Shown here piece by piece: positions 2,302-19,934 of a stretch of 64,000 nucleotides of DNA. The notes under the pieces are model-generated. The model did no database searches. It was given only the letters and a program-made list of their open reading frames with translations, and was not told the DNA's origin. The position numbers were made by a program, and so were the translations under genes. Position 1 is the first letter of the stretch; the number at the start of each line of letters is the position of its first letter. Source of the DNA: Paracoccus subflavus (GTDB lineage Bacteria; Pseudomonadota; Alphaproteobacteria; Rhodobacterales; Rhodobacteraceae); NCBI RefSeq assembly GCF_004310345.1, contig NZ_SISK01000008.1:62001-126000 (forward strand), written 5' to 3'.

Positions 2302-2814
2302 ATGCAGCCTGCACCGACCCCCTCTCCTCCGATTCGCGCCGATGGACTGCAACTCGACGAACATCGCGACCGGCAGGAACGGTACTGGCGCGTGCAGCGC
2401 GCGGCATGGTGGGGGTTCGGGATCATCGTGCTGCTGGCGGTGCTGGGGCTGACGGGCAGCGGGGGGGTGTTCCAGACCCGGACCATAGGCTTTGGAACGG
2501 CAACGGTGGAACTGCCGCGGGTGACCCGGTGGGAAGGCTCGGACGAGCTGACCGTGACCTTTCACGACGCCGCCGACCGTCACGAGATTCGTATCGGCCA
2601 GCCCTTTTTCGACCGCTTCTCGATCGAGCGCATCCAGCCCGAGCCCTTGGAGAACGTGCTTTTGCCGGGTGCGCAATCTCTGGTCTTTCCATCGGCCGGC
2701 GATCCGCCGCATACTGTCAGGATCGACCTGCGCGCGGGGCATTTCGGCTGGACGGCATTCGACATGACCATCGGCGACCAGACCCGGCGCATCTCCCTGA
2801 TCGTTCTGCCCTGA
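2302..2814 (+). CDS. Hypothetical membrane-anchored protein upstream of YetF
   Basis: The 170-residue product starts at ATG 2302 (a TTG directly before it is a less likely start; GAGGG lies about 12 bases upstream). It has a charged N-terminus, one transmembrane segment at about residues 35-55 (AAWWGFGIIVLLAVLGLTG), then a beta-rich domain ending in RRISLIVLP that is probably periplasmic. I do not recognise the family. It is separated from the downstream DUF421 gene by only 8 bases. Proteins of this layout often accompany YetF-type genes, so a shared envelope role is plausible but unproven. Confidence 0.7.
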   Translation: MQPAPTPSPPIRADGLQLDEHRDRQERYWRVQRAAWWGFGIIVLLAVLGLTGSGGVFQTRTIGFGTATVELPRVTRWEGSDELTVTFHDAADRHEIRIGQPFFDRFSIERIQPEPLENVLLPGAQSLVFPSAGDPPHTVRIDLRAGHFGWTAFDMTIGDQTRRISLIVLP

Positions 2815-2822
2815 GGTTCCTG

Positions 2823-3272
2823 ATGGATTCGGTCATTCGCGGCATCGCCATCTATGTCGTTCTTCTGGCGGCGACGCGGCTGACGGGGCGTCGGACCCTG
2901 GCGCAGATGACGCCCTTCGACCTTGTGCTGCTGCTGATCATCGCCGAAACGACCCAGCAGGCCCTGCTGGGGGACGATTTCTCGATCACCAATGCCCTGG
3001 TGCTGATCGTGACGCTGTTTGCAACGGATGTCCTGCTGGCCTTTCTTAAGACCCGGTCGTTCCGCATTGCATCATGGCTGGACGGACATCCCACCGTCCT
3101 GATCAGCAACGGCCGGATCGACCATCACGCCCTGCGCCGGTCGCGGGTCAGCACGGACGAAATCCTGATGACCGCCCGAGAGCAGAATGGACTGAAGTCA
3201 CTGGACGAGATCGACGCCGCCGTTCTGGAAATCAGCGGCGGCATCAGCATCATTCCCAAAAAGGACGCCTGA
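2823..3272 (+). CDS. YetF/DUF421-family membrane protein
   Basis: The 149-residue product carries two to three N-terminal transmembrane helices, including LTGRRTLAQMTPFDLVLLLI, which is the hallmark opening of the DUF421 (YcaP/YetF) family. A small soluble domain follows with the motif HPTVLISNGRI and a C-terminal region (DEILMTAREQNGLKSLDEID) typical of the family. The family forms membrane proteins of poorly defined function, linked in Bacillus to membrane/spore envelope quality. The start is the ATG at 2823, 8 bases after the preceding gene's stop. Family assignment is firm; function is not. Confidence 0.88.
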   Translation: MDSVIRGIAIYVVLLAATRLTGRRTLAQMTPFDLVLLLIIAETTQQALLGDDFSITNALVLIVTLFATDVLLAFLKTRSFRIASWLDGHPTVLISNGRIDHHALRRSRVSTDEILMTAREQNGLKSLDEIDAAVLEISGGISIIPKKDA

Positions 3273-3300: not shown

Positions 3301-3840
3301 TCAAGTCCACGAGACGATGATCGTATCGATGGCGAGGGCTGAAGCGACGTTGATGGCCGGCTTGTCATAACGGGTGGCGACGCGTTGAGTGCCCTTCAGG
3401 CGACGAAGGCGCGCTCGATCCGGTTTCTGTCGCGGTCGGGATCAGCATCGTGGGGGATGGGCTGCTTTGCGCGATCTGGTCGAGGGGATGACGGCCCCTG
3501 TTCCGGACACCGCGAGGCGGACGCGCAGGCTGTTTGCGTCACAGCCCTTGTCGGCCAGCAGGCGGACGGAAGCGGGGCATGTGTCCAAAAGCGCCGGGGC
3601 TTTGGATAGGTCGGCGTGGGTTCCCCGGGCTGAGGGTGACCGCCACCGCTCGCCCGAAACCCTCTGCCAGAGCCTGGATTTTGGCGGACGGACCACCACG
3701 CGAGCGTCCGATGGCCCGAATTTTCGTCCCCTCTTTTCCGCCATGTGCCGAGCGATGGGCGCGCACCGCGGGGCTGTCGATGCTCAGGTTGCCACGGCAC
3801 GGCCCCCGCGCCCCTTGGCGCCCGCGCTGCGCCGGGGCTT
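3301..3840 (-). pseudogene. Degenerate IS5-type (IS427-like) transposase, 3' two-thirds
   Basis: No single frame is open, but joining frames on the minus strand gives clear IS5-family transposase blocks in the right order: IDSPAVRAHRSAHGGK, GTKIRAIGRSRGGPSAKIQ, VRLLADKGCDANSLR, VIPSTRSRKAAHPP, RDRNRIERAF, and finally RVATRYDKPAINVASALAID with IIVSWT before TGA at 3301-3303. At least three frameshifts separate the blocks. The N-terminal third is missing; where it should be, a fragment of a Ku gene is found. The element is therefore inactive. No convincing terminal inverted repeats were identified. Confidence 0.8.
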
Positions 3841-3957: not shown

Positions 3958-4094
3958 GACCGCCTCCGACCCTGCCTGTCGGCGGAACGGCCAAGGGGCA
4001 GGGCAGCTCCGCAGGGCCATCACCGGACTGACATTTGTTGCCGGAACGGAAGGTCATGCGGGGCGGTTGACCCGTGAGGAACAGGGGGCCGGGC

Positions 4095-5144
4095 ATGGAT
4101 GGGGCATTCGATCTGACGGCAGGGCCACCAAGCGACGTCCCGGCCCGCCACCCCCTGCCCGGTCGCATCGCCATTGCCGTTCCGGCGCGCAACGAACAGG
4201 CCCGCCTGCCCCGCCTGTTGTCGGCCTTGGCGGCTGCGGCAGAATTCGGTTCCTGCCCTGTCAGCGCCTTGGTTCTTGCCAACAACTGCACCGACGATAC
4301 CGCCCGCGTGGCGCGTGCCTTTCGTCATCCCGCCCTGGCCGTCGAGACGGTCGAAACCGTCTTTCCCCCCGGGCAGGCCAATGCCGGACGGGCCAGGCGT
4401 CTGGCGATGGATCTGGCCTGGCGGGCCGATGCGCTGCTGATGACCACCGACGGTGACGCGACCCCCGCGCCCGGTTTCGTGGCGGCGGCACTGCGCCATG
4501 TCGCGCAGGGGGCCGATCTGGTCTGCGGCACCATCGGCACCGATGCCCGGCATGTGCTGGCAACCCCATCGGGCGCGCGCATCGCGGCCGCCGAAGGCGC
4601 CTATGGCGCCCTCGTCCACGAGATCCGCCATTGCATCGACCGGATGGCGGGGCGGCAACGGGCGGACGGCGACCGCCCCCATTACACGGAATCGGGCGCC
4701 GCGATCGCCATCCGGGGCGATGCCTATGCGGCCATCGGCGGCCTGCCCCCGATCGCCTCAAGCGAGGATCGCGCCCTGATCCACCAGGCTGAGCGGCATC
4801 GGCTGCGGATCCGCTATGCCCCCGACATGCACGCCCATGTCTCAGCCCGGCTGTTCGGCCGCGCCAGGGGCGGCATGGCCGAATGCCTGCGCCGCCGCAT
4901 GACGGACCCCGACCCCCTGGCCGATCAGGCGATGCTGCCCCTGTCCGTCCTGCGCCGATTGTGGGCGCAGGCCGTGGCGAGCCAGGCGCCGCTGTTTCCC
5001 GACCGGGCGGTGTGCTGCGGACCGCGGCTGCATGCCTCGGACCTGGAACGGCGCCTGCCGGGTCTGAAGGATTTCGTGGAACGGCGGGTCCGGCCCGAAT
5101 TTGCCCGCTGGATGAACGGCGCCCCCGCCATGGCGGTCGCATGA
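4095..5144 (+). CDS. Family 2 glycosyltransferase
   Basis: The 349-residue product has a GT2/GT-A fold: IAIAVPARNEQARLPRLLSAL near residue 25, NNCTDDTARVAR, and the nucleotide-sugar/metal-binding stretch MTTDGDATPAP near residue 118. No transmembrane segment is obvious, so it is probably cytoplasmic. ATG 4095 is preceded by a GGGGG-type ribosome site and preferred over GTG 4074. It is the first gene of a four-gene unit in which each stop overlaps the next start (ATGA at 5141). Coupling to an acyl-CoA-dehydrogenase-like protein, a PIG-L deacetylase and a methyltransferase suggests it makes a small glycan that is then modified. Sugar donor and acceptor are unknown. Confidence 0.85.
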   Translation: MDGAFDLTAGPPSDVPARHPLPGRIAIAVPARNEQARLPRLLSALAAAAEFGSCPVSALVLANNCTDDTARVARAFRHPALAVETVETVFPPGQANAGRARRLAMDLAWRADALLMTTDGDATPAPGFVAAALRHVAQGADLVCGTIGTDARHVLATPSGARIAAAEGAYGALVHEIRHCIDRMAGRQRADGDRPHYTESGAAIAIRGDAYAAIGGLPPIASSEDRALIHQAERHRLRIRYAPDMHAHVSARLFGRARGGMAECLRRRMTDPDPLADQAMLPLSVLRRLWAQAVASQAPLFPDRAVCCGPRLHASDLERRLPGLKDFVERRVRPEFARWMNGAPAMAVA

Positions 5145-6178
5145 CAGCGGCCGAACGGGCCGCCCGCCGCATTGCCGGGGCACCGCCGGACGGACCGGAC
5201 GGGCCGTCCGGTCACGCTCTGGCCGCCGCGCTGCGCGATACCGGCCTGCTGGCGGATTGCGAGGCTCTGGCCCATCACCCCGCCGATCCGCGCGACTTGG
5301 TTCATGCCCTGGCCGTCATCGGCCGGGCCAGCCTGTCGGCGGGCCGAATTCTTGAGGGGCATGTGAACGCGGTCAAGCTGCTGCACCTGCATGGCGGCCC
5401 GCTGGAGCCGATCCGCGACGGCAAGCTGCACGGCATCTGGGGCGCCGATGGTCCGGCGCCGGTGCGCATCGAAAACGGCGTCCTGCGTGGGCAAAAGTTG
5501 TTTTGCAGCGGCTCCGACGTTCTGGACCGGATCATCGTCACCGCACGGCAGGGCGACCGCCCGCAGCTTTTGTTGTTTACGCGCGACCAATTGGCAGACC
5601 GGCTGTTCCCGGACGAATGGCAGGTATCCGGGATGCGGGCCACGGCGTCGGGGCGCTGCGATCTGGACGGCCTCGCCGTGGCCGATGCGGTTCCCCTGGG
5701 CCAGCCGGGCGACTATCTGACCGAGCCGCATTTCCATGGCGGCGTCTGGCGCTATGCCGCCGTGCATCTGGGCGGGATGCGGGCGCTGATGTCGATCACC
5801 GCCGAGCAGTTGCAGGTCCGCGGTCAGGCCGACGCGCCCCTGCAGGCCATGCGCCTGCACCGGATGGTGACGGCCTGCGAAACCGCGCGGCTGTGGCTGG
5901 AACAGGCGGCCTGCGCGGTAGAGCGGCCCGAGGCCACGGCGGCGGATGCGGAAACCGCGATCCTGGCCCGGCTGAAGACGGCCGAGGAGGCGGCAACGGT
6001 CCTGTCGCTGGCCGATCAGGCGCTTGGCGCGGCGTCCTTTGCCACGCGCCATCCCGCCGACCGGATCCGGCGCGACCTGAACTTCTATCTGCGTCAGGCC
6101 GATCCGGACGGGCTGGCGATGGGATCGCTGGCCCGGACCCTGGCCGATCAGGCCCTGCGCGCCCGCTGGATCGGATGA
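5141..6178 (+). CDS. Acyl-CoA dehydrogenase-like protein
   Basis: The 345-residue product resembles acyl-CoA dehydrogenases. The N-terminal helical part is followed by LHGGPLEPIRDGKLHGIWGADGP and a beta domain with GQKLFCSGSDVLDRIIVTAR, and the C-terminal helical domain contains the conserved-looking tail LNFYLRQADPDG. It is shorter than typical members (about 380) and lacks an evident catalytic-base glutamate context I can place, so it may act on a non-fatty-acid substrate. ATG 5141 overlaps the stop of the glycosyltransferase, and its own TGA overlaps the PIG-L start. In this setting it may modify or supply an acyl group on the glycan; that is inference. Confidence 0.75.
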   Translation: MTAAERAARRIAGAPPDGPDGPSGHALAAALRDTGLLADCEALAHHPADPRDLVHALAVIGRASLSAGRILEGHVNAVKLLHLHGGPLEPIRDGKLHGIWGADGPAPVRIENGVLRGQKLFCSGSDVLDRIIVTARQGDRPQLLLFTRDQLADRLFPDEWQVSGMRATASGRCDLDGLAVADAVPLGQPGDYLTEPHFHGGVWRYAAVHLGGMRALMSITAEQLQVRGQADAPLQAMRLHRMVTACETARLWLEQAACAVERPEATAADAETAILARLKTAEEAATVLSLADQALGAASFATRHPADRIRRDLNFYLRQADPDGLAMGSLARTLADQALRARWIG

Positions 6179-6864
6179 GCGGTTTTCTGGATGCCCTGAC
6201 CGATGCGCCGTGGATCAGCGTGGCCGACCTGCTGGGCGACCGTCCCCTGGTGGTGATCGCGCCGCATCCCGACGATGAAACCCTGGGCTGCGGTGCGCTG
6301 CTGTTCGATGCCCATGCGCGGGGCAATCCCTGCCACGTCATCTGCGTGACCGACGGCAGCCGGTCCCATCCGGGATCGCGCGCCTGGCCCCCTGCCCGGC
6401 TGGCCGCCGAACGGCGCGCCGAATTCAACCGGGCGGTGGCGATCCTGGCCCCCGGCGCGGTCACGCATTGGCTGGGCCATCCCGACTGCGCGGCGCCGGA
6501 CGATACCGCGTCAGCCCAGGCCCTGACCCGGCTGATCCCGCACGGGGCATTCGCTTTCGCAAGCTGGGGAATGGACCCGCATATCGACCACCAACGGGTG
6601 GCGGCCCTGACCCGGCGTGTTGTCGCCGAAAGGCCCGATCTGGACCTGGGCTTTTATCCCATCTGGGGGCGCTTCACCAACCATAGCGCTCCGGCCCGGC
6701 TGGTTCTGGCATCCGCTGCCGCGCGCACGGCCAAGGCGCGCGCCCTGGCCTGCCACGGCACCCAGATGACCCGGCTGATCGACGACGATCCCGGCGGCTT
6801 TGTCATGGAGCCGTGGCGGCAAAGTCATTTCCTGATCCATCCCGAGGTGATCCTTGCCCCGTAA
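6175..6864 (+). CDS. PIG-L family N-acetylglucosaminyl deacetylase-like protein
   Basis: The 229-residue product shows the zinc-binding signature APHPDDETLGCGA (His31, Asp33, Asp34) and the distal motif MDPHIDHQRV that supplies the third ligand histidine in PIG-L/LmbE proteins. The family removes acetyl from N-acetylglucosamine-type groups on glycolipids, mycothiol precursors and similar compounds. Start ATG 6175 overlaps the previous stop, and the 3' end overlaps the following methyltransferase start. The combination with a GT2 enzyme upstream and an N-methyltransferase-like gene downstream suggests sequential deacetylation and methylation of an amino sugar. Confidence 0.88.
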   Translation: MSGFLDALTDAPWISVADLLGDRPLVVIAPHPDDETLGCGALLFDAHARGNPCHVICVTDGSRSHPGSRAWPPARLAAERRAEFNRAVAILAPGAVTHWLGHPDCAAPDDTASAQALTRLIPHGAFAFASWGMDPHIDHQRVAALTRRVVAERPDLDLGFYPIWGRFTNHSAPARLVLASAAARTAKARALACHGTQMTRLIDDDPGGFVMEPWRQSHFLIHPEVILAP

Positions 6865-7402
6865 ATCCGTTCTCGATCACCTGGCCCGGCTGTATGGCCG
6901 CAGCGACGATCCCTGGAACCATCGCACCAGTCCCTATGAGGCCAGGAAATATGCGGCCACGCTGGACACCATCGGCCCCGGCCCCTTTGGCAATGCCCTG
7001 GAGATCGGCTGCGGCAATGGCACGCTGTCCCGCAGGCTTGCCCCCCGCTGCCGCCGCCTGACGGCAATGGACGTGACCCCCGCCGCGGTCGAGGCAGCCC
7101 GGCGCCATCTGGCGGATCTGCCGCATGTCGCCGTGGTCCACGGCATGGCGCCCCGCGACCTGCCGGACGGTTCCTTCGATCTGATCCTGCTGTCCGAGGT
7201 CCTGTATTTCCTGACCCCCGACGATATTTCCCTGCTGGGCCATTGGCTGCGCGGCCATGCCGCGGGCCGCATCGTCGCCGTGAACTGGACCGGCCCCACG
7301 GACGAGGAACTGGACGGACCCCGCGCCGTGGCGCTGCTGGCCGGGGCGATCGGTCAGCCTGCCACCACGGACCACGCCGATTATCGCATCGACGTGTTCT
7401 GA
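6854..7402 (+). CDS. SAM-dependent methyltransferase (NodS-like)
   Basis: The 182-residue product has the class I methyltransferase motif I ALEIGCGNGTLSRRLA (from residue 48), an acidic motif II (AMDVTPAAVEAARRHL) and post-motif region FDLILLSEVLYFL. The opening LYGRSDDPWNHRTSPYEARK resembles the start of NodS/NoeI-type methyltransferases that methylate deacetylated chitooligosaccharides. The only plausible start is TTG 6854 inside the end of the PIG-L gene, giving a 11-base overlap. Its last 22 bases overlap the 3' end of the convergent minus-strand gene. Acting on the free amine made by the PIG-L enzyme is a reasonable inference. Confidence 0.85.
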   Translation: MPRKSVLDHLARLYGRSDDPWNHRTSPYEARKYAATLDTIGPGPFGNALEIGCGNGTLSRRLAPRCRRLTAMDVTPAAVEAARRHLADLPHVAVVHGMAPRDLPDGSFDLILLSEVLYFLTPDDISLLGHWLRGHAAGRIVAVNWTGPTDEELDGPRAVALLAGAIGQPATTDHADYRIDVF

Positions 7403-9663
7403 GACAGGATTTCGCGGGCCAGCGGTTCCTCGACGGTGCGCGCGCCGTCTGACGGGTCATGGCCCAGCAGCCCGTTCGGGCACAGACGGTCGTCGTCCCA
7501 GCCGGGATGGTTGGCGATGGGATAGAGGCAGATCCCCTCGACCCGGACGCCGCGTTCCCGCGCGCGGCGCACCTGATCGCTGACATAGCCGAACCAGGAC
7601 GCGCGCCGCGCGCCCTCGGTCCCCGTTTCGGCGATCATCAGCGGGCGGCTGTAACGCGCCGCGACCTCGACCAGCAGGTCGGACAGGGGCCGATACCGGG
7701 GGTGGTCCATGTCGATGGGCGGGCCGCCGTGGACCCACTGGTTGTTCCAGTAGTAATTGACCCCGACGATATCCAGCAGGGACGGATCGCCGCCAAGCTG
7801 CGGCCACATCCGGCCCGCGATCAGCTCGAACGCCTGGAACTGCGCGTCGTGATGGCCCTGCGCCTCCCAGAGGGGACGGCCGTTTTGCGGGTCATGGTGG
7901 ATCGCCAGCAGCGGTTCGGCATGGACAAATCGCGCCCGCGGATCGACCCCGCGCAGTTCGTGCATGGCGGCGATGGACGCGCGGGCGAGCTGGCACTTCA
8001 GTTCGTATCCGCGCCGGCAGGCGAAGGGATTCAGATACTGCGCGTCGCCCCCGGCCCAGGCGAAAAAGCTGATCTCGTTCACCGGGCACCAGAAGGGCAC
8101 GGCGTCGGTGATCTCCCGGTGATGCCGGGCCACCGCGCGCGAGAAGGCCGCGAAACGGTCCACAAAGGCCGGGGTCCAGATGTCCAGGCCGTCGGGCCAG
8201 CCGTAATGCAGCAGATCCCAGATCACCTGCGTGCCGGTGTCCCGCGCGGCCCGCATCATCGGCGTGAGGCTGGCAAAGTCGTATCGTCCGGGGGCGGTTT
8301 CGATCCGGTGCCACCGCACGCCGTCGCGGCAGGCGCGGATGCCCAGATCTGCGAGTTGCCGGTAATCCTGGGCGGCGTGGGCGCCGTGCCCGATGGCGTC
8401 GATCAGGTCCAGCCGCCGGCCATTGCGCAGCCGGTGGGACGATGCCTCCCATCCCCCCAGCACGAAGCTGGCGAATGTCGCGGGCGGCGGGGCGGGTTGC
8501 CGTTCGGCCAGAACCGTGTCGATCAGCGCCTGCCATTGCGGCACCACGACCTGCGCGGAATAGGCGGCATGGACATGATCCCGCAGGGCGGTTCCCAGCC
8601 GCTGGCGCAGGGGGGCGTCGTCCAGCAGCCGCGTGATGGCATCGGCCACGGCGGCGGGGTCTTCGTGCGGCACGAAGATGCCGCTGATGCCATCGGCGAT
8701 CTGCTGGAGGGCGCCGTTGTCGGGGGTGGCGATCACGGGCAGGCCCGCCGCCCCGGCCTCGGCGATGACATGGGGCATCCCCTCGCCGCGCGACAGCCAG
8801 CAGAAGATGTCCATGGCGGCCAGCAGGTCGGGCACGTCCTTGCGGTCGCCGGTAAAGATGGCACGCCTGCCCAGCGGTTCGGCCATCCGGCGCAAGTCAT
8901 CCGCGTATTCCGGCATGAAGGCATCCGGCCCGCCGACGATCAGAAAGCGCGCCTTGGGATGGACCGGCGCGATGCTCAGGGCGGCGGCGACAAGATCCTC
9001 GACCCGCTTCTTGCGGTCCAGCCGCCCGACCCAGCCGATCAGGATCTCATCAGGCGCCACGCCCAGGGACGCGCGGACCCCGTTGCGCCGGTCGGGGTGG
9101 AATTCGTCCAGATCGACCATCGACGGGATTTCCAGGGCGTCCCTCGGCCGATCGGACATCCGGCCCGCCGCCGCCGCCCGGATGCTGTCGCAGACCCCGA
9201 CATAGCGGGCGGTGAAATGCTTCGGTCCGGCCAGGGCCTCGGACACCAGACCGCCATGTTCGATCAGCGGCGGACGCAGCGCCATGCGTTCCAGCGCCGG
9301 ATAGATGTCGGCGACGTTCTGGCAGGACACGACCACATCAGCGTCCGCCAGCCTGCGGCGCAGATAGTCGATGGTGTCCTCGAACCCCAGGCCATAGGGG
9401 GTGGTGTCCACCTCCACGCCCAAATCGATCAGTTGCTGATGCGTTTGGTCGGGCATCCCCTCCTTGCGGAAACAGGGGATGACCGTGATGCGGTATCGCT
9501 CGCGCGGCAGGTTGCGGGCCAGCAGACGGATTTCCGTCTCCTCTCCCCCCACGACCAACCAGGCCATCACGAAGGTGATGCGGATCACCCTGTGCCCGTC
9601 ATGGGGCGCGGGAAAGGTTTCGGGGGGAACGAAGCCCCAGACCTGCGGGCCGTCCATGCTCAT
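7381..9663 (-). CDS. Fused GT4 glycosyltransferase and GH1-like glycoside hydrolase
   Basis: The 760-residue product joins two enzymes in one uninterrupted frame. Residues 25-390 form a GT4 (GT-B) glycosyltransferase: VVGGEETEIRLLARNLP, GWVGRLDRKKRVEDLV, and the donor-site region SRGEGMPHVIAEAGAAGLPV. From about residue 400 the sequence becomes a TIM-barrel glycosidase: GGWEASSHRLRNGRRLDL, WHRIETAPGRYDF, CPVNEISFFAW (acid/base Glu candidate) and MIAETGTEG (nucleophile Glu candidate), as in clan-A enzymes such as GH1. There is no internal Met at the joint, so this is a real fusion. Start ATG 9663 overlaps the stop of the upstream dehydrogenase gene. Confidence 0.85.
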   Translation of the reverse strand: MSMDGPQVWGFVPPETFPAPHDGHRVIRITFVMAWLVVGGEETEIRLLARNLPRERYRITVIPCFRKEGMPDQTHQQLIDLGVEVDTTPYGLGFEDTIDYLRRRLADADVVVSCQNVADIYPALERMALRPPLIEHGGLVSEALAGPKHFTARYVGVCDSIRAAAAGRMSDRPRDALEIPSMVDLDEFHPDRRNGVRASLGVAPDEILIGWVGRLDRKKRVEDLVAAALSIAPVHPKARFLIVGGPDAFMPEYADDLRRMAEPLGRRAIFTGDRKDVPDLLAAMDIFCWLSRGEGMPHVIAEAGAAGLPVIATPDNGALQQIADGISGIFVPHEDPAAVADAITRLLDDAPLRQRLGTALRDHVHAAYSAQVVVPQWQALIDTVLAERQPAPPPATFASFVLGGWEASSHRLRNGRRLDLIDAIGHGAHAAQDYRQLADLGIRACRDGVRWHRIETAPGRYDFASLTPMMRAARDTGTQVIWDLLHYGWPDGLDIWTPAFVDRFAAFSRAVARHHREITDAVPFWCPVNEISFFAWAGGDAQYLNPFACRRGYELKCQLARASIAAMHELRGVDPRARFVHAEPLLAIHHDPQNGRPLWEAQGHHDAQFQAFELIAGRMWPQLGGDPSLLDIVGVNYYWNNQWVHGGPPIDMDHPRYRPLSDLLVEVAARYSRPLMIAETGTEGARRASWFGYVSDQVRRARERGVRVEGICLYPIANHPGWDDDRLCPNGLLGHDPSDGARTVEEPLAREILSQNTSMR

Positions 9664-10766
9664 GCCTCGAACACGATCTGGAGGAAGTCTGGGCGTTCGG
9701 CCACCAGGCGGCGCAGGAAATCGGGCGCGTCGCCATAGGGCACCACATGGGTGATCATGTGCTGGCGGATCAGGTCGCCCTCGGCCGCCAGCAGGCGCAG
9801 CGTTTCCCGCGCCAGCCGCCGCTGGTCCCAGGCATGGGCCACCGGACGCGGCATCCGGTTGATCTGCGCGCAGCGGATCGCCAACCCGTTGTGGTGGAAT
9901 TCCTCGCCCAGACGGGCACCGTCCATGCCGCCCTGATAAAAGGCCAGGTCGATCACCGTTCCCTGCGGGCGCAAAGCCTGAAGGCAACGGTTGAGGCTGT
10001 CGGACCGCGCGCGCGTCTGGAACACGTATTCCGCACCCCGCCCGCCGACCTTGTGATGCCAGGCGGATTTGGCGTATCGCACGGCCTCGTCCTCGGCCAT
10101 GGCGGTGAATCCCATCCTGCGGGCGATGTCCTGACGGAAGGGCGAGGGGTCCACCACGACGATTTCCGAGGCCCCGCCAGCCCTGGCAAACAATGCGCAG
10201 AACAGGCCCACCGTGCCGCCGCCCCAGACCAGGACCGGGCGACCCTCGACCCCTGCCCCGAGGTTCGGGACATTCGCGCCGAACTGGTCGGCATCGGCGT
10301 GCAGAATGCCGTTCGCCGCGATCGGACCCATCTGCGCCACGAAGATGCCCAGCATCGGGTCCATGCCGTCGGGCATCTTCAGCAGCAGGTCATGGGCGGG
10401 GTTCGCGGTGTGCCCGGTCTTGTGGCCGAAGGTGGTGGCCACGACATCGCCCTTGGCGAAACCCGGCGCGCGGGCATCGACGACACGCGCGACCTCCATG
10501 TAGCCCAGGAAATTCACCGGGAAATGCGCCGACGGCTCTCCGGGGATGAACAGCCCCTGCCAGTCGTCCCAGCGGCTGTGCAGATAAGGGTTCGTGCCCT
10601 TCAGGAAGGTCAGCTCGGTCCCCGCCGACAGGCCGGTATACATCAGATCCAGCCGCACCTGCCCGTCGCCCGCCGGGCCTTCGTCATAGCCGAAGAAATA
10701 CGGCTCGCCCGGCCGTTCGATGCCCAGGGACCGGATATGGCGATGCTCATGCGGCATCAGGGGCAC
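9660..10766 (-). CDS. Zinc-type alcohol dehydrogenase-like oxidoreductase
   Basis: The 368-residue product is a medium-chain dehydrogenase/reductase relative: LMYTGLSAGTELTFLKGTNP at the N-terminus, GYMEVARVVDA, and a nucleotide-binding segment VLVWGGGTVGLFCALFARAG. The typical structural-zinc cysteines are absent, which places it with sugar-modifying members such as BchC-like or threonine-dehydrogenase-like proteins rather than classical ADH. It overlaps the upstream GT4-oxidoreductase gene by 20 bases and its stop overlaps the next start, so it is translated as part of the glycan operon. It probably oxidises or reduces a sugar intermediate. Confidence 0.8.
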   Translation of the reverse strand: MPLMPHEHRHIRSLGIERPGEPYFFGYDEGPAGDGQVRLDLMYTGLSAGTELTFLKGTNPYLHSRWDDWQGLFIPGEPSAHFPVNFLGYMEVARVVDARAPGFAKGDVVATTFGHKTGHTANPAHDLLLKMPDGMDPMLGIFVAQMGPIAANGILHADADQFGANVPNLGAGVEGRPVLVWGGGTVGLFCALFARAGGASEIVVVDPSPFRQDIARRMGFTAMAEDEAVRYAKSAWHHKVGGRGAEYVFQTRARSDSLNRCLQALRPQGTVIDLAFYQGGMDGARLGEEFHHNGLAIRCAQINRMPRPVAHAWDQRRLARETLRLLAAEGDLIRQHMITHVVPYGDAPDFLRRLVAERPDFLQIVFEA

Positions 10767-12840
10767 CTTGCGCAGCGGACGGACGAAAGATGGGCTGCGG
10801 GTCAGCCCGCAGCCCCTCCATCTTCACAAGGGCGCCGTCGCGGGCGGATTGCGCGACCGCGAGGGCCACGCGATGGGTCATCAGCGCCTCGGCATAGGGG
10901 CAGCGGATGCGGTTTTCGCGGCCCTGCACGGCCTCGATGAAATCGCGGTCCTCGCGCCAGACCGGATCGCCCTGGGCGGGACGCACGGGACGGCCGCGTC
11001 CCACATCCACCATCAGGTCGTGGTCGGTGATCTCCAACGCCATGCCATCGGCAAAGACATGCAGCCCGACGCGGTGGTTCCAACGCAGCAGGCAGGTGGC
11101 CGAAAGGTTGGCGATGGCGCCGCTGGCGAAGCGCAACGTGGCGGCCGTCGCCGTGGGCACGGTCAGGCCCTGGAAATCGGCGCGGTCGCGGCGGGCGGAC
11201 ATGCCGAACACCTCGGTCACGTCGCCGGCCAGGAACCGGGCGGCGTCGATCACATGGGTCGCCTGTTCGACCACCTGCCCGCCGCTGCGATCATGATCCC
11301 ACCACCATTGCGGAGGCGGGGTCTGGTCCAGCCAGAATCCCTGGATCAGATGCGGGGCGTTTTGCGCCAGATGGCCGCGCGCCTCGTCCATCGTGTCCAG
11401 GTATCGCCAGTGGTATCCGACGGCGGTGATCAGGCCCGCGGCCTCGACCTCGGCCGCGATCTCCTCGGCCAGGGCGATGTCCAGCGAGATGGGCTTTTCG
11501 ACGAAGAACGGCAGGCCCTTGGCGATGCAGGCGCGTTCGGGCGCGCCATGGGCAAAGGGCGGCACGCAGATATAGACGGCGTCAAGATCCCCGGCCGCCA
11601 GCATGGCGTTGTGATCGGGATAGGCGACGGCCCCGGTTGCCTCGGCTGCCTGCCGGGCGCGGTCCCTGTCCGGGTCGCAGACGGCGGCGATCTGCACGTC
11701 CTCCATGGTGCGCAGCACGCCGAAATGGCGATGCGCGATGCCGCCCGCGCCGATGAAGCCCAGCCTTGTCTTGGTCATTCCGTCCTCGCTTCGTTGCCGC
11801 GACACGCGGCGATAGATGTCCAGGGTGTCTGCCGCCATGCGCGCGGCGGTGAAAGTGGCGGCCCAGCGTTCGCGGCTGTTCCGGGCCACAGCGGCGCGGC
11901 GCGCGGGATCGGTCAGGGCCTGTGCCAGGGCATCGGCCAGGGCGCGTGACCGGCGGGGCGGCACAAGCCAGGGGTGATCCGGTCCCAGAGCCTCGGCGGT
12001 GCCGGGAACATCGGTGGCGACGACCGGCAGGCCGATGGCCATGGCCTCGAGGACCGCCAGGGGCAGCCCCTCGAACCCCGAGGGCAGAACCAGCAGGTCG
12101 GACCCCGCCATCAGCGCGGGCACGTCCTCGCGCCGGCCCAGAAAGCGGACATGATCGCCCAGCCCCAGCCGCACGGCCCAGCGGCGCAGGCGCGCCTCGC
12201 CCGGTCCCTGCCCCACCAGATCCAGCCGGGCGGCGAGGCCGCTTCGATGCAGCCGTGCAAGCGCCGCCAGCAATGTCCGGTGCAGTTTCTGCGGGGTAAA
12301 GCGACCCGCGCAAAGCAGCGTCATCCCGTCCCGATCCCCGCGACGCAAGCCGGGATCGGCGATGCCGTTGGGAACGACATGGACCGGAAGATCAGGGTTC
12401 ATCCTGCTCAGCACCGCCTGCCAGTCCTCCGCCACCCCCTGCGAGACCGCGATGATTGCGTCCACCTCGCGGCTGGCCCCGGCATAATGCCCGATCTGGT
12501 CGGCATCGGTCAGAAGCCAGGGAAGATGTTCGGTCCGGATGACCGCCCGGCCAGCCCGTGCCGCCGCCGCGACAAGACCGTGGCCTTCCCAGCCGATGCC
12601 GGCATGGACGTGGATCATGCATCCCGGATGGGCGGTGATAACGGCATCCGGGTCATCGGGGTGGAAAACCGTCGCCGCAAGCCCCCTCTGCCGCGCCCGC
12701 GCGGCAAGCCCCTGCCCGGCGGCGTGGTCGGGAAATCCCAGCGACGCCATGCCGGGCGGCAAGGCGGCGGCCAGGGTCAGCATGTGTTCGCCCACCCCCG
12801 AAGGCTCGGGGCTGTCGGTCACGATCAGGCAGCGCATCAA
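10747..12840 (-). CDS. Fused GT4 glycosyltransferase and Gfo/Idh/MocA oxidoreductase
   Basis: The 697-residue frame carries a GT4 glycosyltransferase (residues 1-350; CAGRFTPQKLHRTLLAAL, and SGFEGLPLAVLEAMAIGLPV at the donor site). It then continues, with no stop, into a Gfo/Idh/MocA NAD(P)-dependent sugar oxidoreductase (residues 355-697; RLGFIGAGGIAHRHFGVL and the catalytic-region motif FVEKPISLD). At the joint a good ribosome site (GAGGA) lies 5 bases before an internal ATG at 11778, so the oxidoreductase may also be made alone. The sequence ATGA occurs at that ATG, which is the overlap used by neighbours, so the fusion could stem from a one-base change upstream. Confidence 0.85.
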   Translation of the reverse strand: MMRCLIVTDSPEPSGVGEHMLTLAAALPPGMASLGFPDHAAGQGLAARARQRGLAATVFHPDDPDAVITAHPGCMIHVHAGIGWEGHGLVAAAARAGRAVIRTEHLPWLLTDADQIGHYAGASREVDAIIAVSQGVAEDWQAVLSRMNPDLPVHVVPNGIADPGLRRGDRDGMTLLCAGRFTPQKLHRTLLAALARLHRSGLAARLDLVGQGPGEARLRRWAVRLGLGDHVRFLGRREDVPALMAGSDLLVLPSGFEGLPLAVLEAMAIGLPVVATDVPGTAEALGPDHPWLVPPRRSRALADALAQALTDPARRAAVARNSRERWAATFTAARMAADTLDIYRRVSRQRSEDGMTKTRLGFIGAGGIAHRHFGVLRTMEDVQIAAVCDPDRDRARQAAEATGAVAYPDHNAMLAAGDLDAVYICVPPFAHGAPERACIAKGLPFFVEKPISLDIALAEEIAAEVEAAGLITAVGYHWRYLDTMDEARGHLAQNAPHLIQGFWLDQTPPPQWWWDHDRSGGQVVEQATHVIDAARFLAGDVTEVFGMSARRDRADFQGLTVPTATAATLRFASGAIANLSATCLLRWNHRVGLHVFADGMALEITDHDLMVDVGRGRPVRPAQGDPVWREDRDFIEAVQGRENRIRCPYAEALMTHRVALAVAQSARDGALVKMEGLRADPQPIFRPSAAQGAPDAA

Positions 12841-12844
12841 GCGG

Positions 12845-15181
12845 TCATGCCAGAGGCGCCAGGACGCCCGCCGCGGGCTGCCGCGCCGTCAGCCGCCGGT
12901 GGATGGCCAGAGCCTGCCCCACGACCTGATCCATGTTGTAATAGCGATAGCTTCCCAGGCGGCCCGCAAAGATCACGTCCGGCTCGGCGGCCGCAAGCGC
13001 GTCATACCGGCGGAACAGGGCCTGGTTCTCGGGACACGGGATCGGGTAATAGGGATCGCCCTCGGCCGAGGGGTATTCGTAGCTGATCGAGGTGCGGGCG
13101 TGGGTCTGCCCGGTCAGGTACTTGTATTCCGTGATGCGGGTATAGGGCACGTCCTCGGCCGGAAAGTTCACCACGCCCACCGGCTGGAACCGCGCCTCGT
13201 CCAGCGTCTCGTGCCGGAACCGCAGGCTGCGATAGGGCAGCGTGCCGAACCGGTGCCCGAAATAGGCGTCGATGGGGCCGGTATAGACAAGCTGCCGCCC
13301 CCGGTCCGCCGCGTCGAGATCGTGGAAGTCGGTGCCAAGGGCGATGTCGATGCCGGGATGGTCCAGCATCCGTTCGAACATCCGGGTATAGCCCTCCTTC
13401 GGCATGGCCTGATGCCTGTCGGTAAAGTAACGGTCGTCGGTATTGGTCCGGGTGGGAACCCGCGCCGTTACCGACTTGTCCAGTTGCGAAGGATCAAGAC
13501 CCCATTGCTTGCGGGTATAGCCCTGGAAAAAGGTTTCATAAAGCTCGGCCCCGATGGCGTTGACCACCACGTCGCGCGAGGTGCGGATGTCGCGCACGGG
13601 CTGCGCCTTGCGGGCCAGGAACGCCTCGGCCTCGGCCTCGGTTTGCATGTCCAGGCCGTAAAGGGCGTTCAGGGTCGTGCGGTTGATGGGCATGGGCACC
13701 GACTTGTCGCCCACCCGCGCCAGCACCCGATGTTCGTAGGGACGCCATTCGGTGAACCGGCCCAGCCAGGAAAACACCTCGTCGCTGTTGGTGTGAAAGA
13801 TATGAGGGCCATAGCGGTGGATCAGGATGCCGGCTTCGTCCAGGCAGTCATAGGCATTGCCCCCGATGTGGTTGCGCTTGTCCACCAGCAGCACCCGCTT
13901 GCCCGACACCTCGGCGAACTGCCGCGCCAGCACGGACCCGGCAAAGCCCGCGCCACAGATCGTCACGTCGTGCTTTTTCGCCCCCCGCAGGACCGGCGGC
14001 ACCGGAATGTTGACCGGCTGGGCGGGCATCAGCCGGGCATGGACGGCCCGGTCCAGATGCAGGCGCATCTGGCGGAAGGTGTTGTCCCAGCTCAGATCGG
14101 CCAGCAGGCGGTCGGCCGCGTCCCGCCAATCCCCTGCGCCCTTGCGCAGGGCCATAGCCGCGTCGCAGGCGCGCACAAAGGTCGGGGCGTCGCCGGCGAT
14201 CCGCACCGCCTCAAGCCCGCCATAATAGCGCAGCACGTCGCGCACCGGCGTGGAGACGACCGGCACGCCCCCCGCCAGATATTCCGGCGTCTTGGTGGGC
14301 GAGATGAAGCGCGTGGCCTCGTTCATGGCGAAGGGCATCAGAGCCACGTCCCAGCCCGACAGATAGGCCGGCAACTGGTCATAGCCACGCTGCCCCAGCC
14401 AGTGGATATTGGACGCGCGAGGCAGATCCCCGGGCGCGATCTTGGCAAGCGGGCCGACCATGATGACCGACCAATCGGGACGGGCCGCGGCCAGGGCCGC
14501 GATCAGCCCCAGATCCAGCCGTTCGTCGATCACGCCGTAATATCCCAGACGCGGACGCGGCAGGCCGGCCTGATCCTCGGGCTCGGCCATGACGCCCCGC
14601 GCCTGGGCAAAATGCGCCGTATCGACCGACGAGGGAAACGGGTGGATGTTGCCGTGCCGCCCGGCCTTGGCCTCGTAGATGGAATGGCCGCCGGTAAAGA
14701 CCACATCGGCCGCCGCCATCAGCGCCGCTTCGTTCGCGGCCATTTCGGGCGGCGCAAAGCGGAAGGCCGACAACTCGTCCATGCAGTCATAGACCACGGC
14801 GGCGGCATCGACATGGGCCGCCACGGGCCACATCATCGGCGTATAGAACCACAGGACCGGACGATGGATGCCGGTCAAGCCCATCATCTGATCCAGCAGC
14901 CGCGACAGCGCGCGGGCCTGATCGGCGGGCGACCAGCGGGCGGGGACGCGGGGGCGGATCGACTGGACGGTCGTGCCCTCGAAGGCGTGGAATTCCAGAT
15001 AGGGCAGATGATGGTCGGTCGGGATCGCCTCCTCCCAGAAGAACAGCCGATAATCGGCCGCAAAGCGCGACATCAGGTGCTGCGGGCGTTGCAGCACGAA
15101 ATCCCAGCGAAGATGGGAAAAGCAGATCAGGGCGGGGCGGACCGGTGCGGAAAAGGGGATCACAGGGTTGGCGTCGTTCAT
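12845..15181 (-). CDS. Fused glycosyltransferase and UDP-galactopyranose mutase
   Basis: The 778-residue product has an N-terminal GT-B-type glycosyltransferase (about residues 15-395; VLQRPQHLMSRFAADYRLFF, PTKTPEYLAGGVPVVSTPV) and a full UDP-galactopyranose mutase (residues 404-778). Mutase landmarks are the FAD-binding ICGAGFAGSVLARQFAE, NHIGGNAYDCLDEAGILIH, FFQGYTRKQWG and RTNTDDRYFTD. The mutase makes UDP-galactofuranose, so the fused transferase may use galactofuranose directly. The start is ATG 15181, overlapping the stop of the upstream glycosyltransferase; the frame is open further upstream but that part lies inside the neighbour. It argues for galactofuranose in the locus product. 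Confidence 0.88.
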   Translation of the reverse strand: MNDANPVIPFSAPVRPALICFSHLRWDFVLQRPQHLMSRFAADYRLFFWEEAIPTDHHLPYLEFHAFEGTTVQSIRPRVPARWSPADQARALSRLLDQMMGLTGIHRPVLWFYTPMMWPVAAHVDAAAVVYDCMDELSAFRFAPPEMAANEAALMAAADVVFTGGHSIYEAKAGRHGNIHPFPSSVDTAHFAQARGVMAEPEDQAGLPRPRLGYYGVIDERLDLGLIAALAAARPDWSVIMVGPLAKIAPGDLPRASNIHWLGQRGYDQLPAYLSGWDVALMPFAMNEATRFISPTKTPEYLAGGVPVVSTPVRDVLRYYGGLEAVRIAGDAPTFVRACDAAMALRKGAGDWRDAADRLLADLSWDNTFRQMRLHLDRAVHARLMPAQPVNIPVPPVLRGAKKHDVTICGAGFAGSVLARQFAEVSGKRVLLVDKRNHIGGNAYDCLDEAGILIHRYGPHIFHTNSDEVFSWLGRFTEWRPYEHRVLARVGDKSVPMPINRTTLNALYGLDMQTEAEAEAFLARKAQPVRDIRTSRDVVVNAIGAELYETFFQGYTRKQWGLDPSQLDKSVTARVPTRTNTDDRYFTDRHQAMPKEGYTRMFERMLDHPGIDIALGTDFHDLDAADRGRQLVYTGPIDAYFGHRFGTLPYRSLRFRHETLDEARFQPVGVVNFPAEDVPYTRITEYKYLTGQTHARTSISYEYPSAEGDPYYPIPCPENQALFRRYDALAAAEPDVIFAGRLGSYRYYNMDQVVGQALAIHRRLTARQPAAGVLAPLA

Positions 15182-16350
15182 CGCATGGTCCTTGCATGGC
15201 GGATTTCGGTCAGTACATCGGTCAGCACCGCCATGCTGGGTTGCCACCCCCAGCGTGACAGCGCGACCGGCCGGGGGTCATAGCGCCCATAGTCGCGCAG
15301 CAGCATGTCAAGCGTCTGGGCGAAATCGGCGCCTTCGTGGGCGATCGCGCCGGTTTCCGGGGTCACGAACTGCAAACCGCAGGTCAGCCGGGCATTGGCC
15401 AGAACCGGCAGCCCCGCCAACTGGTATTCGGTCAAGATCGCGGGCGCGCCGTCATCCACCCCACAGACCACGCCCACGCGGGCGCGGTTGATCTGGCGGT
15501 TCACCTCGTCATGGGGCACGCCGGGGGGGCCGACGATTTCCAGATCCAGGCCCTCGCGGGCAGAGCGGTCACGGAATTCATCGGCCTGATGGCCATAGCC
15601 CACCACCAGCAGCCCGCGCGTGCCGGGCCTGCGGGCCATGGCGTCGAACAGGATATCGTGGCGCTTGTAGGGCTGCGCGCAGGCCACATAGACCACGTCG
15701 CGATCCTTGTCGGCCCCGGTGGGAAAGAATGTCTCGCCCGAGGCAAAGGCCGGGCCGATGGGCAGAACCAGCGTGCGCGCGCCGGGAACCCTGGATTCGA
15801 TCTCGCGCGATTGCCAGTCGGCGCCGGTCAGGAACAGGTCAAAGCGCATGGCCAGATCGTCCGGGATGCGCAAGGCGGGTGCGTCGATAGAGTTGTAGAT
15901 CTTCAACGACCCCGCGCAGGCCTCCAGCAGGGCTGCGTCCACCCCGATGCCCCAGACGCACAGGATGTCGGGCGCGCCCACCGTCCTGACGAATTCCACC
16001 GCCTCGGCCGAGGAATAGGGGGCGGGGCCGTCGGCACGAAAGACCCGCCGGATCAGGGCCGGGCTGTCGGGATCGGGTGTCCCGTCCCGCAACCCCCGGT
16101 CGCGGTCGGATTCCCCGTCGCGCCCTGCAAAACTCCAGACCTCGGCATGATCGACAAGACCGCTGGCGACCGCCGCCAGTGGCAGACGTTGCAGATAACC
16201 GCCGATCACCGCTGGGGAATCAGGGCGACTGGCGCCCGGAATGGCGGCCTCTGTCCAGAAACCAGCCGGGGGCCGGGAATGGGACGGAAAAGGCGGAACC
16301 TGCGAACAATAGTCGGAAATCGCAGCAATCCAGCCCGGCATATGGTCCAT
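15178..16350 (-). CDS. Glycosyltransferase, first gene of the fused-transferase operon
   Basis: The product of about 390 residues has a weak N-terminal acceptor domain and a clear GT-B C-terminal domain: DVVYVACAQPYKRHDILFDA, LVVGYGHQADEFRDR, and the donor-site stretch TEYQLAGLPVLANARLTCG. The start is uncertain: ATG 16350 and ATG 16341 are possible, and a GTG at 16383 would extend the frame. It is the promoter-proximal gene of the minus-strand operon and its TGA overlaps the mutase fusion start. The specific linkage is unknown. Confidence 0.75.
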   Translation of the reverse strand: MDHMPGWIAAISDYCSQVPPFPSHSRPPAGFWTEAAIPGASRPDSPAVIGGYLQRLPLAAVASGLVDHAEVWSFAGRDGESDRDRGLRDGTPDPDSPALIRRVFRADGPAPYSSAEAVEFVRTVGAPDILCVWGIGVDAALLEACAGSLKIYNSIDAPALRIPDDLAMRFDLFLTGADWQSREIESRVPGARTLVLPIGPAFASGETFFPTGADKDRDVVYVACAQPYKRHDILFDAMARRPGTRGLLVVGYGHQADEFRDRSAREGLDLEIVGPPGVPHDEVNRQINRARVGVVCGVDDGAPAILTEYQLAGLPVLANARLTCGLQFVTPETGAIAHEGADFAQTLDMLLRDYGRYDPRPVALSRWGWQPSMAVLTDVLTEIRHARTMR

Positions 16351-16460
16351 CCTGTTCAAGCAATCGTTAACATGGATGTTCACGAAAGGTTGCGTTGATT
16401 TTAGTTAACCATCTTATCCGATGCAGCCTGCAATCCCTTGGGGGAAAGGCGGGCAGGCGG

Positions 16461-17150: not shown

Positions 17151-17220
17151 GCCCTGCCCGGCCCGGCCCGGAACCGGCGACCTGTGCGTCCGTTGCCCCC
17201 GACAGGCAGGGAGCCCGCGC

Positions 17221-17550
17221 ATGAGATCGCATGACGACATCTGGTCCGAATGGCAGAGACTGGTGAACATGGCGCCCTCCGAACTGCGCGACTGGCTGGA
17301 TACGGATGACAGCCGATCGGTGGGGGACAGCGGCGGCCAGGGCGAAAGCACCGGCCACAAGTCGGGCCGCCACATCCTGCGCATCAAGGACAAGAAAAAG
17401 GCCGATCTGAGCGATGACGACTGGGCGCACATGGCCAAGGTGGTGGGTTATATCAAGCGTCATACCAGCCAAGGCGGGCCGAGGGACGACAAGGAACACA
17501 GCAAGTGGCGGTTCTCGCTGATGAACTGGGGCCATGATCCACTGAAGTGA
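17221..17550 (+). CDS. DUF3140-family protein
   Basis: The 109-residue product matches the DUF3140 pattern along its whole length: LVNMAPSELRDWLDTDDSRS, GESTGHKSGRHILRIKDKKK, DDDWAHMAKVVGYIKRH and the nearly invariant end WRFSLMNWGHDPLK. These small soluble proteins of unknown role often bind or are predicted to bind DNA. ATG 17221 directly follows a GGCAGGGAG ribosome site. It faces the PRC-barrel gene with a strong hairpin between. Confidence 0.9.
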   Translation: MRSHDDIWSEWQRLVNMAPSELRDWLDTDDSRSVGDSGGQGESTGHKSGRHILRIKDKKKADLSDDDWAHMAKVVGYIKRHTSQGGPRDDKEHSKWRFSLMNWGHDPLK

Positions 17551-18322: not shown

Positions 18323-18451
18323 GTCAAACCTCTTTTGCCGAAAGTCTTGGAACAACCGTCCGAACGGCATAGGGTTCCCCCAAATATCCGTGTGCGCCCG
18401 GTTCCGGTGACTGGGGGGGGTCGTTATTCCCGGAACCTCCGGACCCGCCGC

Positions 18452-19695: not shown

Positions 19696-19934
19696 GGCGG
19701 GTCTCGGGTATGGCATCGAAGAAAACAGTCTATCCCCGGAACAGAGCGAAAACCAGATGCGGTGCAGTGACGCGGCAAGGCTGGCCGGCCGGATCGGCAG
19801 GGGGGCGGGATACGCAGGACAATGACGCCAGGTCGTTGAATGACGACACTTCCATGACATGGGATCGGCGACTTGACACCCTCCGGCACACCTCACACAG
19901 TCTTGACGGGGATGGCCGTCCGGCCGAGGCGGCC

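What the first reader, a model, noticed from the sequence alone, without database searches (positions are those of the whole stretch)
4095..16350. Convergent pair of operons with a Nod-factor-like modification set plus galactofuranose enzymes
Four coupled genes (GT2, acyl-CoA-dehydrogenase-like, PIG-L deacetylase, NodS-like methyltransferase) converge on an operon of glycosyltransferases fused to a glycosidase, a Gfo/Idh oxidoreductase and UDP-galactopyranose mutase, plus a further ADH-like enzyme. Making a glycan, deacetylating an amino sugar and methylating the amine is the logic of lipochitooligosaccharide synthesis, but no NodC, NodA or export genes are seen. The product could be an undescribed surface or secreted glycan containing galactofuranose. 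Domain calls are direct; the pathway is inference.
Basis: partly seen in the sequence, partly recalled or inferred. Interest (0 to 1): 0.75.

Follow-up and report, generated by a model that had tools for sequence, protein, structure and literature searches.

The report
Stress-induced amino-sugar and galactofuranose cassettes
Two neighbouring sets of bacterial genes look like separate mobile kits for building and modifying an unknown sugar compound; one of them carries the switch of the general stress response, and in radiation-resistant Deinococcus bacteria parts of the two kits are fused into one protein, so they probably serve the same unknown product.

Summary
The genes are as described; the window is from a Paracoccus. 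The + strand set (GT2, acyl-CoA-dehydrogenase-like flavoenzyme, PIG-L, NodS-like methyltransferase) and the - strand set (GT4; GT-UDP-galactopyranose mutase; GT4-Gfo/Idh; ADH; GT4-GH1-like) are two separate conserved cassettes, not one pathway fixed in the genus: 20 and 31 of 121 genus genomes carry them, 7 both, 5.1 expected. They are not a Nod-factor system (no NodA; the methyltransferase scores 79 bits against the NodS cut-off of 300). So the cassettes are separable but probably functionally linked. Most likely they make a stress-induced, cytosolically assembled glycoside or glycolipid with a de-N-acetylated, N-methylated amino sugar, decorated with galactofuranose where both are present. 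The product is inferred, not shown.

The parts
4043..4068 (+). EcfG-type general-stress-response promoter GGAAC-N18-GTT; ends 26 bases before the GT2 ATG at 4095
   Evidence: same motif before GT2 in 18 of 20 close Paracoccus loci, shuffles 0.22 of 20 on average, largest 2
4095..5144 (+). GT2 glycosyltransferase, first gene of cassette A
   Evidence: PF13641 41 bits; no membrane segment by hydropathy
5141..6178 (+). acyl-CoA-dehydrogenase-fold flavoenzyme, family profile nearest to DszC-type monooxygenases
   Evidence: PF00441; profile A2 against PDB sequences: DszC 1.4e-18, acyl-CoA dehydrogenases from 3.7e-15, DnmZ 1.2e-10
6175..6864 (+). PIG-L de-N-acetylase, the only PIG-L match in the genome at E <= 0.001
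   Evidence: PF02585; HPDDE and HxDH motif residues invariant in 23 sequences, with one change at the P/A next to them
6854..7402 (+). NodS-like SAM methyltransferase
   Evidence: PF05401 66.6 bits; NCBIfam NodS 79.1 against cut-off 300; PDB 4isc 1.1e-19, NodS 3ofj 2.6e-15
7381..9663 (-). GT4 + GH1-like domain fusion, last gene of cassette B
   Evidence: PF13692 103 bits; GH domain 7384-8502 modelled at pLDDT 90.8, GH1 fold Z 35.4
9660..10757 (-). zinc-type (MDR) dehydrogenase
   Evidence: PF00107
10747..12837 (-). GT4 + Gfo/Idh/MocA oxidoreductase fusion
   Evidence: PF00534 125 bits, PF01408 85 bits
12845..15181 (-). TuaH-like glycosyltransferase + UDP-galactopyranose mutase fusion
   Evidence: PF03275 263 bits; TIGR00031 374 bits, cut-off 303.75; TuaH 73.8 bits, cut-off 550
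15178..16383 (-). GT4 glycosyltransferase, first gene of cassette B
   Evidence: PF00534 38 bits; found at this place in other loci
17170..17194 (+). second EcfG-type site, before a 109-aa ORF at 17221-17550
18354..18378 (-). third EcfG-type site, at the start of the ORF of a PRC-barrel gene (17624-18370 -)

Best explanation
Two mobile, separable biosynthetic cassettes meet here. Cassette A (GT2, DszC-like flavoenzyme, PIG-L, NodS-like methyltransferase) is switched on by the alphaproteobacterial general stress response through an EcfG-type promoter: the GT2 adds an N-acetylated sugar to an unknown acceptor, PIG-L removes the acetyl group, the methyltransferase methylates the freed amine and the flavoenzyme oxidises the product. 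Cassette B makes UDP-galactofuranose and uses it through its fused transferase, with three more transferases or transferase domains, two oxidoreductases and an intact-looking GH1-like domain. All nine enzymes look soluble, so the compound is built in the cytosol, more likely as a small glycoside or glycolipid than as a polymer. Each cassette is found alone in most hosts; where both are present (this genome, some Paracoccus, some Deinococcus) they act on the same compound. Shown: gene content, conservation, promoter motif, stress sigma locus, fusion. Inferred: every reaction, their order, the product and its role, and that the promoter is used.
For: Four genes together in 30 of 30 Paracoccus loci examined, down to 35% identity and in two gene orders, and annotated or matched side by side in Novosphingobium, Deinococcus, Bradyrhizobium, Sulfitobacter, Roseivivax, Komagataeibacter, Jiella, Sphingomonas and Acinetobacter. 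EcfG motif before GT2 in 18 of 20 close loci, the most frequent spaced pair in an unbiased count, shuffle mean 0.22; other ORFs of those loci 14 of 213. Published motifs: GGAAC-N17-20-GTT (PMC6599016) and GGAAC-N16-CGTT (PMC7083833) (passages). NepR in the own genome at 52.7 bits, between PhyR-like and EcfG-like ORFs that I named from their translations, with one GGAAC-N18-GTT upstream (71 of 200 shuffles also have one). Catalase, Mn-catalase, Dps, Ku/LigD or otsAB lie near cassette A in 8 of 19 annotated plasmid regions viewed. GH domain fused to the flavoenzyme in 7 Deinococcus plasmid records, 53% identical to the window's GH domain over 354 aa, with GT and mutase genes in the same cluster in 3 of the 7.
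Against: No co-occurrence beyond chance in the genus (7 against 5.1) or class. The EcfG motif is missing in 9 of 10 loci of the divergent Paracoccus group and in 14 of 20 loci of other genera of the family; cassette B has no such site within 100 bases in the window (one lies 151 bases before its first ORF, inside the next gene) nor in any named Paracoccus locus, so shared regulation is not shown. Four of 7 Deinococcus fusion records have no GT and mutase genes in the stretch viewed. Eleven of 19 regions viewed have no such stress gene within the count, and no control was made for how often such genes lie near any gene. The flavoenzyme's reaction rests on a profile ranking; its single-sequence model was useless (pLDDT 42).
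Confidence: 0.58

Rival explanations
1. Surface polysaccharide: the cassettes tailor a capsule, exopolysaccharide or LPS made by polymerase and export genes elsewhere in the genome.
For: Galactofuranose and several GTs are typical of surface glycans (general knowledge). In the divergent Paracoccus group cassette A often lies next to a GT4-like, a GT2-like and a longer GT2-like protein (named from translations; clusters 7, 8 and 5 in 6, 6 and 8 loci), and in Azospirillum and Skermanella a gene with ABC transporter membrane and ATPase domains follows the GT/mutase/GH genes.
Against: No export, polymerase or priming gene in either cassette in the window; no membrane segments; the cassettes lie among varied neighbours.
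Confidence: 0.25
2. The two operons are accidental neighbours in a stress island and make unrelated products.
For: No co-occurrence excess; 0 of 33 named operon B loci carry the flavoenzyme; cassette A is on plasmids in many hosts.
Against: GH-flavoenzyme fusion in 7 Deinococcus records with GT and mutase genes in the same cluster in 3; touching in 2 and about 4 kb apart in 1 of the 7 Paracoccus genomes that have both, in two arrangements.
Confidence: 0.25
3. Nod-factor-like lipochitooligosaccharide synthesis.
For: Transferase, deacetylase and NodS-like methyltransferase together.
Against: NodA absent from the own genome, found in 2 of 4 rhizobial control genomes; NodS score far below cut-off; the deacetylase is PIG-L, not NodB's family (recalled); GT2 has no membrane segments.
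Confidence: 0.02

Closest known systems
Nod-factor tailoring (NodC/NodB/NodA/NodS)
   Same: sugar transfer, de-N-acetylation, N-methylation by a NodS-like enzyme (chemistry inferred here)
   Different: no NodA, a PIG-L instead of a NodB, a GT2 without membrane segments, an extra flavoenzyme, an EcfG-type promoter; nod box, NodB, NodC and NodIJ were not searched for
Mycothiol and bacillithiol synthesis (MshA/MshB, BshA/BshB)
   Same: transferase followed by PIG-L deacetylase in a stress-related setting
   Different: GT2 instead of GT4 in cassette A; PIG-L scores 29.1 bits against BshB1 cut-off 182.5 and 19.6 against MshB 224.35; methyltransferase and flavoenzyme added, no ligase in the cassette
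DszC/SfnB-type monooxygenases and amino-sugar nitrososynthases (DnmZ, 3mxl)
   Same: acyl-CoA-dehydrogenase superfamily; DszC is the best PDB profile match, SfnB the best NCBIfam match at 32.1 bits, cut-off 430.9
   Different: short (345 aa), distant, substrate unknown
Galactofuranose glycan loci with glf
   Same: UDP-galactopyranose mutase above cut-off, with transferases
   Different: mutase fused to a TuaH-like transferase and tied to a GH1-like domain; no export genes in the window
EcfG (general stress response) regulon of Alphaproteobacteria
   Same: promoter consensus and a phyR-nepR-ecfG-like locus in the genome
   Different: I saw no cassette A-like operon in the passages of the two regulon papers that I viewed (PMC6599016, PMC7083833); their supplements were not read

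Membership tests
Nod-factor biosynthesis | NodA acyltransferase in the genome | tested here: not met
   0 matches in own genome; 2 of 4 rhizobial genomes match at E 8e-97 and 3e-101, the other 2 do not
Nod-factor biosynthesis | methyltransferase above the NodS equivalog cut-off | tested here: not met
   79.1 bits, cut-off 300
Nod-factor biosynthesis | membrane chitin synthase NodC | tested here: inconclusive
   the cassette's GT2 has no membrane segment; genome not searched for NodC
UDP-galactopyranose mutase | score above TIGR00031 cut-off | tested here: met
   374.4 bits, cut-off 303.75
PIG-L de-N-acetylases | Pfam cut-off and motifs H-x-D-D-E and H-x-D-H | tested here: met
   74.7 to 78.1 bits, cut-off 28.2; H31, D33, D34, E35, H136, D138, H139 invariant in 23 sequences; metal role recalled
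Acyl-CoA dehydrogenase | catalytic glutamate | tested here: inconclusive
   no conserved Glu at the two usual places in alignment A2; the places are recalled, and the C-terminal one is projected, not aligned directly
DszC-type flavin monooxygenase | reduced-flavin monooxygenase activity | not testable with these tools
   nearest PDB profile matches only
Glycoside hydrolase family 1 | GH1 fold with two catalytic carboxylates | tested here: met
   Z 35.4, 351 residues, rmsd 3.0 to 8znv; N142-E143 and E292 invariant in 15 sequences; that these are the catalytic pair is inferred from motif
Glycoside hydrolase family 1 | Pfam PF00232 match | tested here: not met
   no match for the window's domain; 4 of 14 alignment members match at up to 0.1, best E 0.00049
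EcfG regulon | promoter motif at the start of the operon, conserved | tested here: met
   18 of 20 close Paracoccus loci, 1 of 10 divergent ones
EcfG regulon | transcription depends on ecfG | not testable with these tools
   no expression data
Mycothiol/bacillithiol pathways | PIG-L above BshB1/BshB2/MshB cut-offs | tested here: not met
   29.1, 28 and 19.6 bits against 182.5, 195.25 and 224.35

The most novel reading that the evidence does not exclude
A class of stress-induced small glycoconjugates, so far unseen, in which an amino sugar is de-N-acetylated, N-methylated and N-oxygenated by a DszC/nitrososynthase-like flavoenzyme and can be capped with galactofuranose; versions of it are shared by Alphaproteobacteria, Acinetobacter, Deinococcus, Rubrobacter and Nostoc and protect against oxidation or drying.
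Probability: 0.2. Interest if true: 0.8.

Novelty: new variant of a known kind. Interest (0 to 1): 0.55.

Why it matters
A four-gene unit that is kept together across phyla, often sits among catalases, Dps and DNA end-joining genes and carries a stress-type promoter points to a common but unnamed stress metabolite or glycan. The Deinococcus fusion links it to galactofuranose and gives laboratory species in which one deletion and mass spectrometry could find the compound.

Tried and rejected
Two operons as one conserved pathway: rejected as a fixed unit on counts, kept as a functional link because of the fusion. The class searches scored only 5, 7 and 2 candidates per genome, so absences there are soft; searches agree except for one genome (G397, PIG-L only). 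The 11 genomes include some that match the mutase half alone.

Nod-factor reading: rejected. The first NodA search rang nowhere, so it was repeated with rhizobial genomes as positive control; two of four of these did not ring either.

Flavoenzyme structure: single-sequence prediction failed (pLDDT 42.4) and was not used for a fold search. Counting of DszC residue numbers gave His97 and Ser163 as the partners of two invariant residues of A2; I recalled another histidine number from memory, could not check it (one search found no paper), and draw nothing from it.

Literature: searches for the gene set (no paper with the terms asked; 85, 86: listings only, nothing on the set in titles and abstract starts) and for galactofuranose or stress regulon links (listings). 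Passages only were seen of PMC6599016 and PMC7083833. 'Not described' therefore means not found in these searches; most subscription journals and all supplements were out of reach. In PMC6599016 a run of glycosyltransferase genes (#3505-3509) and a Zn-alcohol dehydrogenase (#2499) are EcfG-dependent; I could not tell whether they are homologues of either cassette.

Rows dropped: of 37 genus genomes with a flavoenzyme hit at E <= 1e-10, 30 were examined; G001 (68% identical fragment at a contig end, not among the 20), G093, G061, G136, G114, G088 and G052 were not. In one search one named locus at a contig end (L053) was dropped, leaving 33 of 34. Of the 20 family loci (best match of each of 20 genomes, own genome left out) 15 have all four genes; L274 and L288 are cut by contig ends, L285 shows PIG-L and flavoenzyme only, L286 and L287 PIG-L only. 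The region of Nostoc has no annotation and is not in the count of 19.

Full report
What is there. The + strand genes overlap by a few bases each (4095-5144, 5141-6178, 6175-6864, 6854-7402) and run tail to tail, with a 22-base overlap, into a - strand operon of five genes (16383 down to 7381). Call these cassette A and cassette B. The genus is Paracoccus: the nearest named relatives are Paracoccus, and contigs of 'same genus' genomes have the lengths of named Paracoccus contigs (G024:C55 163233 and G003:C9 113866 bases). The assembly is 3.18 Mb with one PIG-L match in all. None of the nine proteins has an obvious membrane segment by hydropathy (largest 19-residue mean 1.75).

Cassette A is a real unit. 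The 30 Paracoccus loci examined that have the flavoenzyme (window, L034, L179-L206) also have GT2, PIG-L and the methyltransferase beside it, 30 of 30, in two gene orders and down to 35% identity; 7 further genomes with hits were not fetched. Fifteen of 20 loci from other genera of the family, picked by PIG-L, have all four. Plasmid records show flavoenzyme, PIG-L and methyltransferase with a GT2 (in either orientation) in Novosphingobium, Deinococcus, Bradyrhizobium, Sulfitobacter, Roseivivax, Komagataeibacter, Jiella, Sphingomonas and Acinetobacter. Rubrobacter has a polysaccharide deacetylase gene and no annotated PIG-L, Nostoc has the four homologues by tblastn, and Methylobacterium sp. 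FF17 has the flavoenzyme without the others. One class genome has the genes split over two places (G403).

Cassette A carries a stress-type promoter. GGAAC-N18-GTT lies at 4043-4068 and ends 26 bases before the GT2 start codon. In the 20 genus genomes whose flavoenzyme is at least 59% identical over most of its length, 18 have GGAAC-N17/18-GTT starting within 115 bases of the projected GT2 start; an unbiased count of spaced pairs puts this pair first; shuffled sequences give 0.22 of 20, at most 2. Other ORFs of the same loci have it in 14 of 213 cases, among them a PRC-barrel gene and, by names that I recall from the translations, Ku-like and catalase-like genes. The divergent group has it in 1 of 10 and loci of other genera in 6 of 20, at up to about 205 bases. 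The published EcfG motifs are GGAAC-N17-20-GTT (PMC6599016) and GGAAC-N16-CGTT (PMC7083833), seen as passages. The own genome has NepR (52.7 bits) between ORFs that I read as PhyR and EcfG from their translations, and one GGAAC-N18-GTT lies upstream of NepR (chance alone gives one in 71 of 200 shuffles of that stretch). Two more sites stand before neighbouring genes in the window (17170, 18354). Over the whole window the motif is only mildly enriched, 9 against 4.2 expected, 3 of 100 shuffles reaching 9. Catalase, Mn-catalase, Dps, Ku/LigD or otsAB lie near cassette A or its relatives in 8 of 19 annotated plasmid regions viewed (yes; not counted: 38, 43, 77-79, 82, 84, 92, 104, 106, 107, where 43 has a 'general stress protein' and 104 a catalase-family gene about 11 kb away); no control was made.

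What the enzymes of cassette A look like. PIG-L keeps H-x-D-D-E and H-x-D-H in all 23 sequences aligned. The methyltransferase is nearest in the PDB to 4isc and then to NodS but far below NCBI's NodS cut-off. The flavoenzyme family profile ranks DszC-type desulfurisation monooxygenases first (1.4e-18) and acyl-CoA dehydrogenases next (3.7e-15); nitrososynthases are also hit (DnmZ 1.2e-10, 3mxl 5.1e-9). I therefore favour an oxygenase over an acyl-CoA dehydrogenase, but this is a ranking, not a test.

Cassette B. The UDP-galactopyranose mutase is above its cut-off and fused to a TuaH-like transferase. The GH domain was modelled from 15 sequences (pLDDT 90.8) and is a GH1 fold (Z 35.4 over 351 residues) with N142-E143 and E292 invariant, so it may be an active retaining enzyme, as hydrolase or transglycosidase. 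Cassette B has EcfG-like sites within 400 bases in 8 of 33 named loci (shuffle mean 0.63, largest 3), none of the 8 a Paracoccus; of 7 unnamed Paracoccus loci two have one, at -351 and -142; in the window one lies 151 bases before the first ORF, inside the next gene.

Are A and B linked? Against: in 121 genus genomes A (20) and B (31, by ADH at 74% identity or more) coincide in 7, 5.1 expected, P 0.22; counting the divergent A too, 34 and 31 coincide in 11, 8.7 expected, P 0.20. In 385 class genomes 7 have PIG-L of A and 11 the mutase profile, and only the own genome both. None of 33 named B loci has A in the stretch held. For: of the 7 genus genomes with both, A and B touch in two (window, G021) and lie about 4 kb apart, divergent, in a third (G131); in the other four they are on different contigs. 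In Deinococcus gobiensis the flavoenzyme gene codes for 782 residues, of which the first half is 53% identical to the window's GH domain and the second half 34% to the window's flavoenzyme. It is followed by PIG-L, methyltransferase, a reversed GT2 and then split homologues of the GT (52%) and mutase (62%). Seven Deinococcus plasmid records have this fusion over at least 80% of its length: PIG-L is next to it in 5, one gene away in D. wulumuqiensis, not seen in D7000; GT and mutase genes are in the same cluster in gobiensis, AJ005 and D7000 and not in the stretch viewed in the other four. The GH domain also travels with GT and mutase as separate genes (QL22, actinosclerus, Skermanella, Mesorhizobium ciceri), with the GT-mutase fusion (Azospirillum), and in Pantoea is in one protein with the GT and an amine-oxidase-like domain. 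I read this as a fusion link: A and B are separable kits that work on one compound where they meet.

Mechanism. GT2 adds an N-acetylated sugar; PIG-L frees the amine; the methyltransferase methylates it; the flavoenzyme oxidises it. Cassette B adds galactofuranose and other sugars, the Gfo/Idh and ADH enzymes altering a sugar at the keto level and the GH1-like domain trimming or transferring. Each step is inferred from family. The lack of membrane, polymerase and export parts favours a small compound; the transporter-like gene behind the Azospirillum and Skermanella clusters and the extra transferase-like genes near the divergent A cassettes leave a surface glycan possible.

Verdict. The finding gains a likely regulator and a fusion link and loses the claim that the pair is conserved as one unit. 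No description of the gene set turned up in the searches listed under Tried and rejected.

Noticed in passing
18452-19896 (-): Fatty-acid-hydroxylase-like and desaturase-like genes lie end to end; by recalled motif they resemble carotenoid CrtZ and CrtW.
   Followed up: no
17170-17550 (+): A 109-aa ORF with an EcfG-type site about 50 bases upstream, next to a PRC-barrel gene with another site: perhaps a small stress island beside cassette B.
   Followed up: partly
2406-3272 (+): ORF with DUF421/YetF domains before cassette A; a DUF421 gene also lies near cassette A in Acinetobacter johnsonii.
   Followed up: no
L260:9998-13711, L261:9992-13720: Single proteins of about 1240 aa in Pantoea sp. 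and Acinetobacter venetianus plasmids with GH1-like and GT domains homologous to cassette B; the Pantoea one ends in an amine-oxidase-like domain.
   Followed up: partly
L262:7553-12915, L264:7442-13006: Azospirillum and Skermanella: GT and mutase (fused or separate), GH1-like gene and a protein with ABC transporter membrane and ATPase domains in a row.
   Followed up: partly
G792: Three PIG-L matches of this family in one genome, two of them with an internal stop.
   Followed up: no
L242, L243 (G403): Cassette A split: flavoenzyme with methyltransferase at one place, PIG-L with GT2-like genes about 283 kb away.
   Followed up: no
L207 3394-5616, L210 12352-14415, L252 5570-7750, L255 399-2477: A catalase gene of about 2.1-2.2 kb lies near cassette A in Novosphingobium, Sulfitobacter, Sphingomonas and Acinetobacter.
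   Followed up: partly
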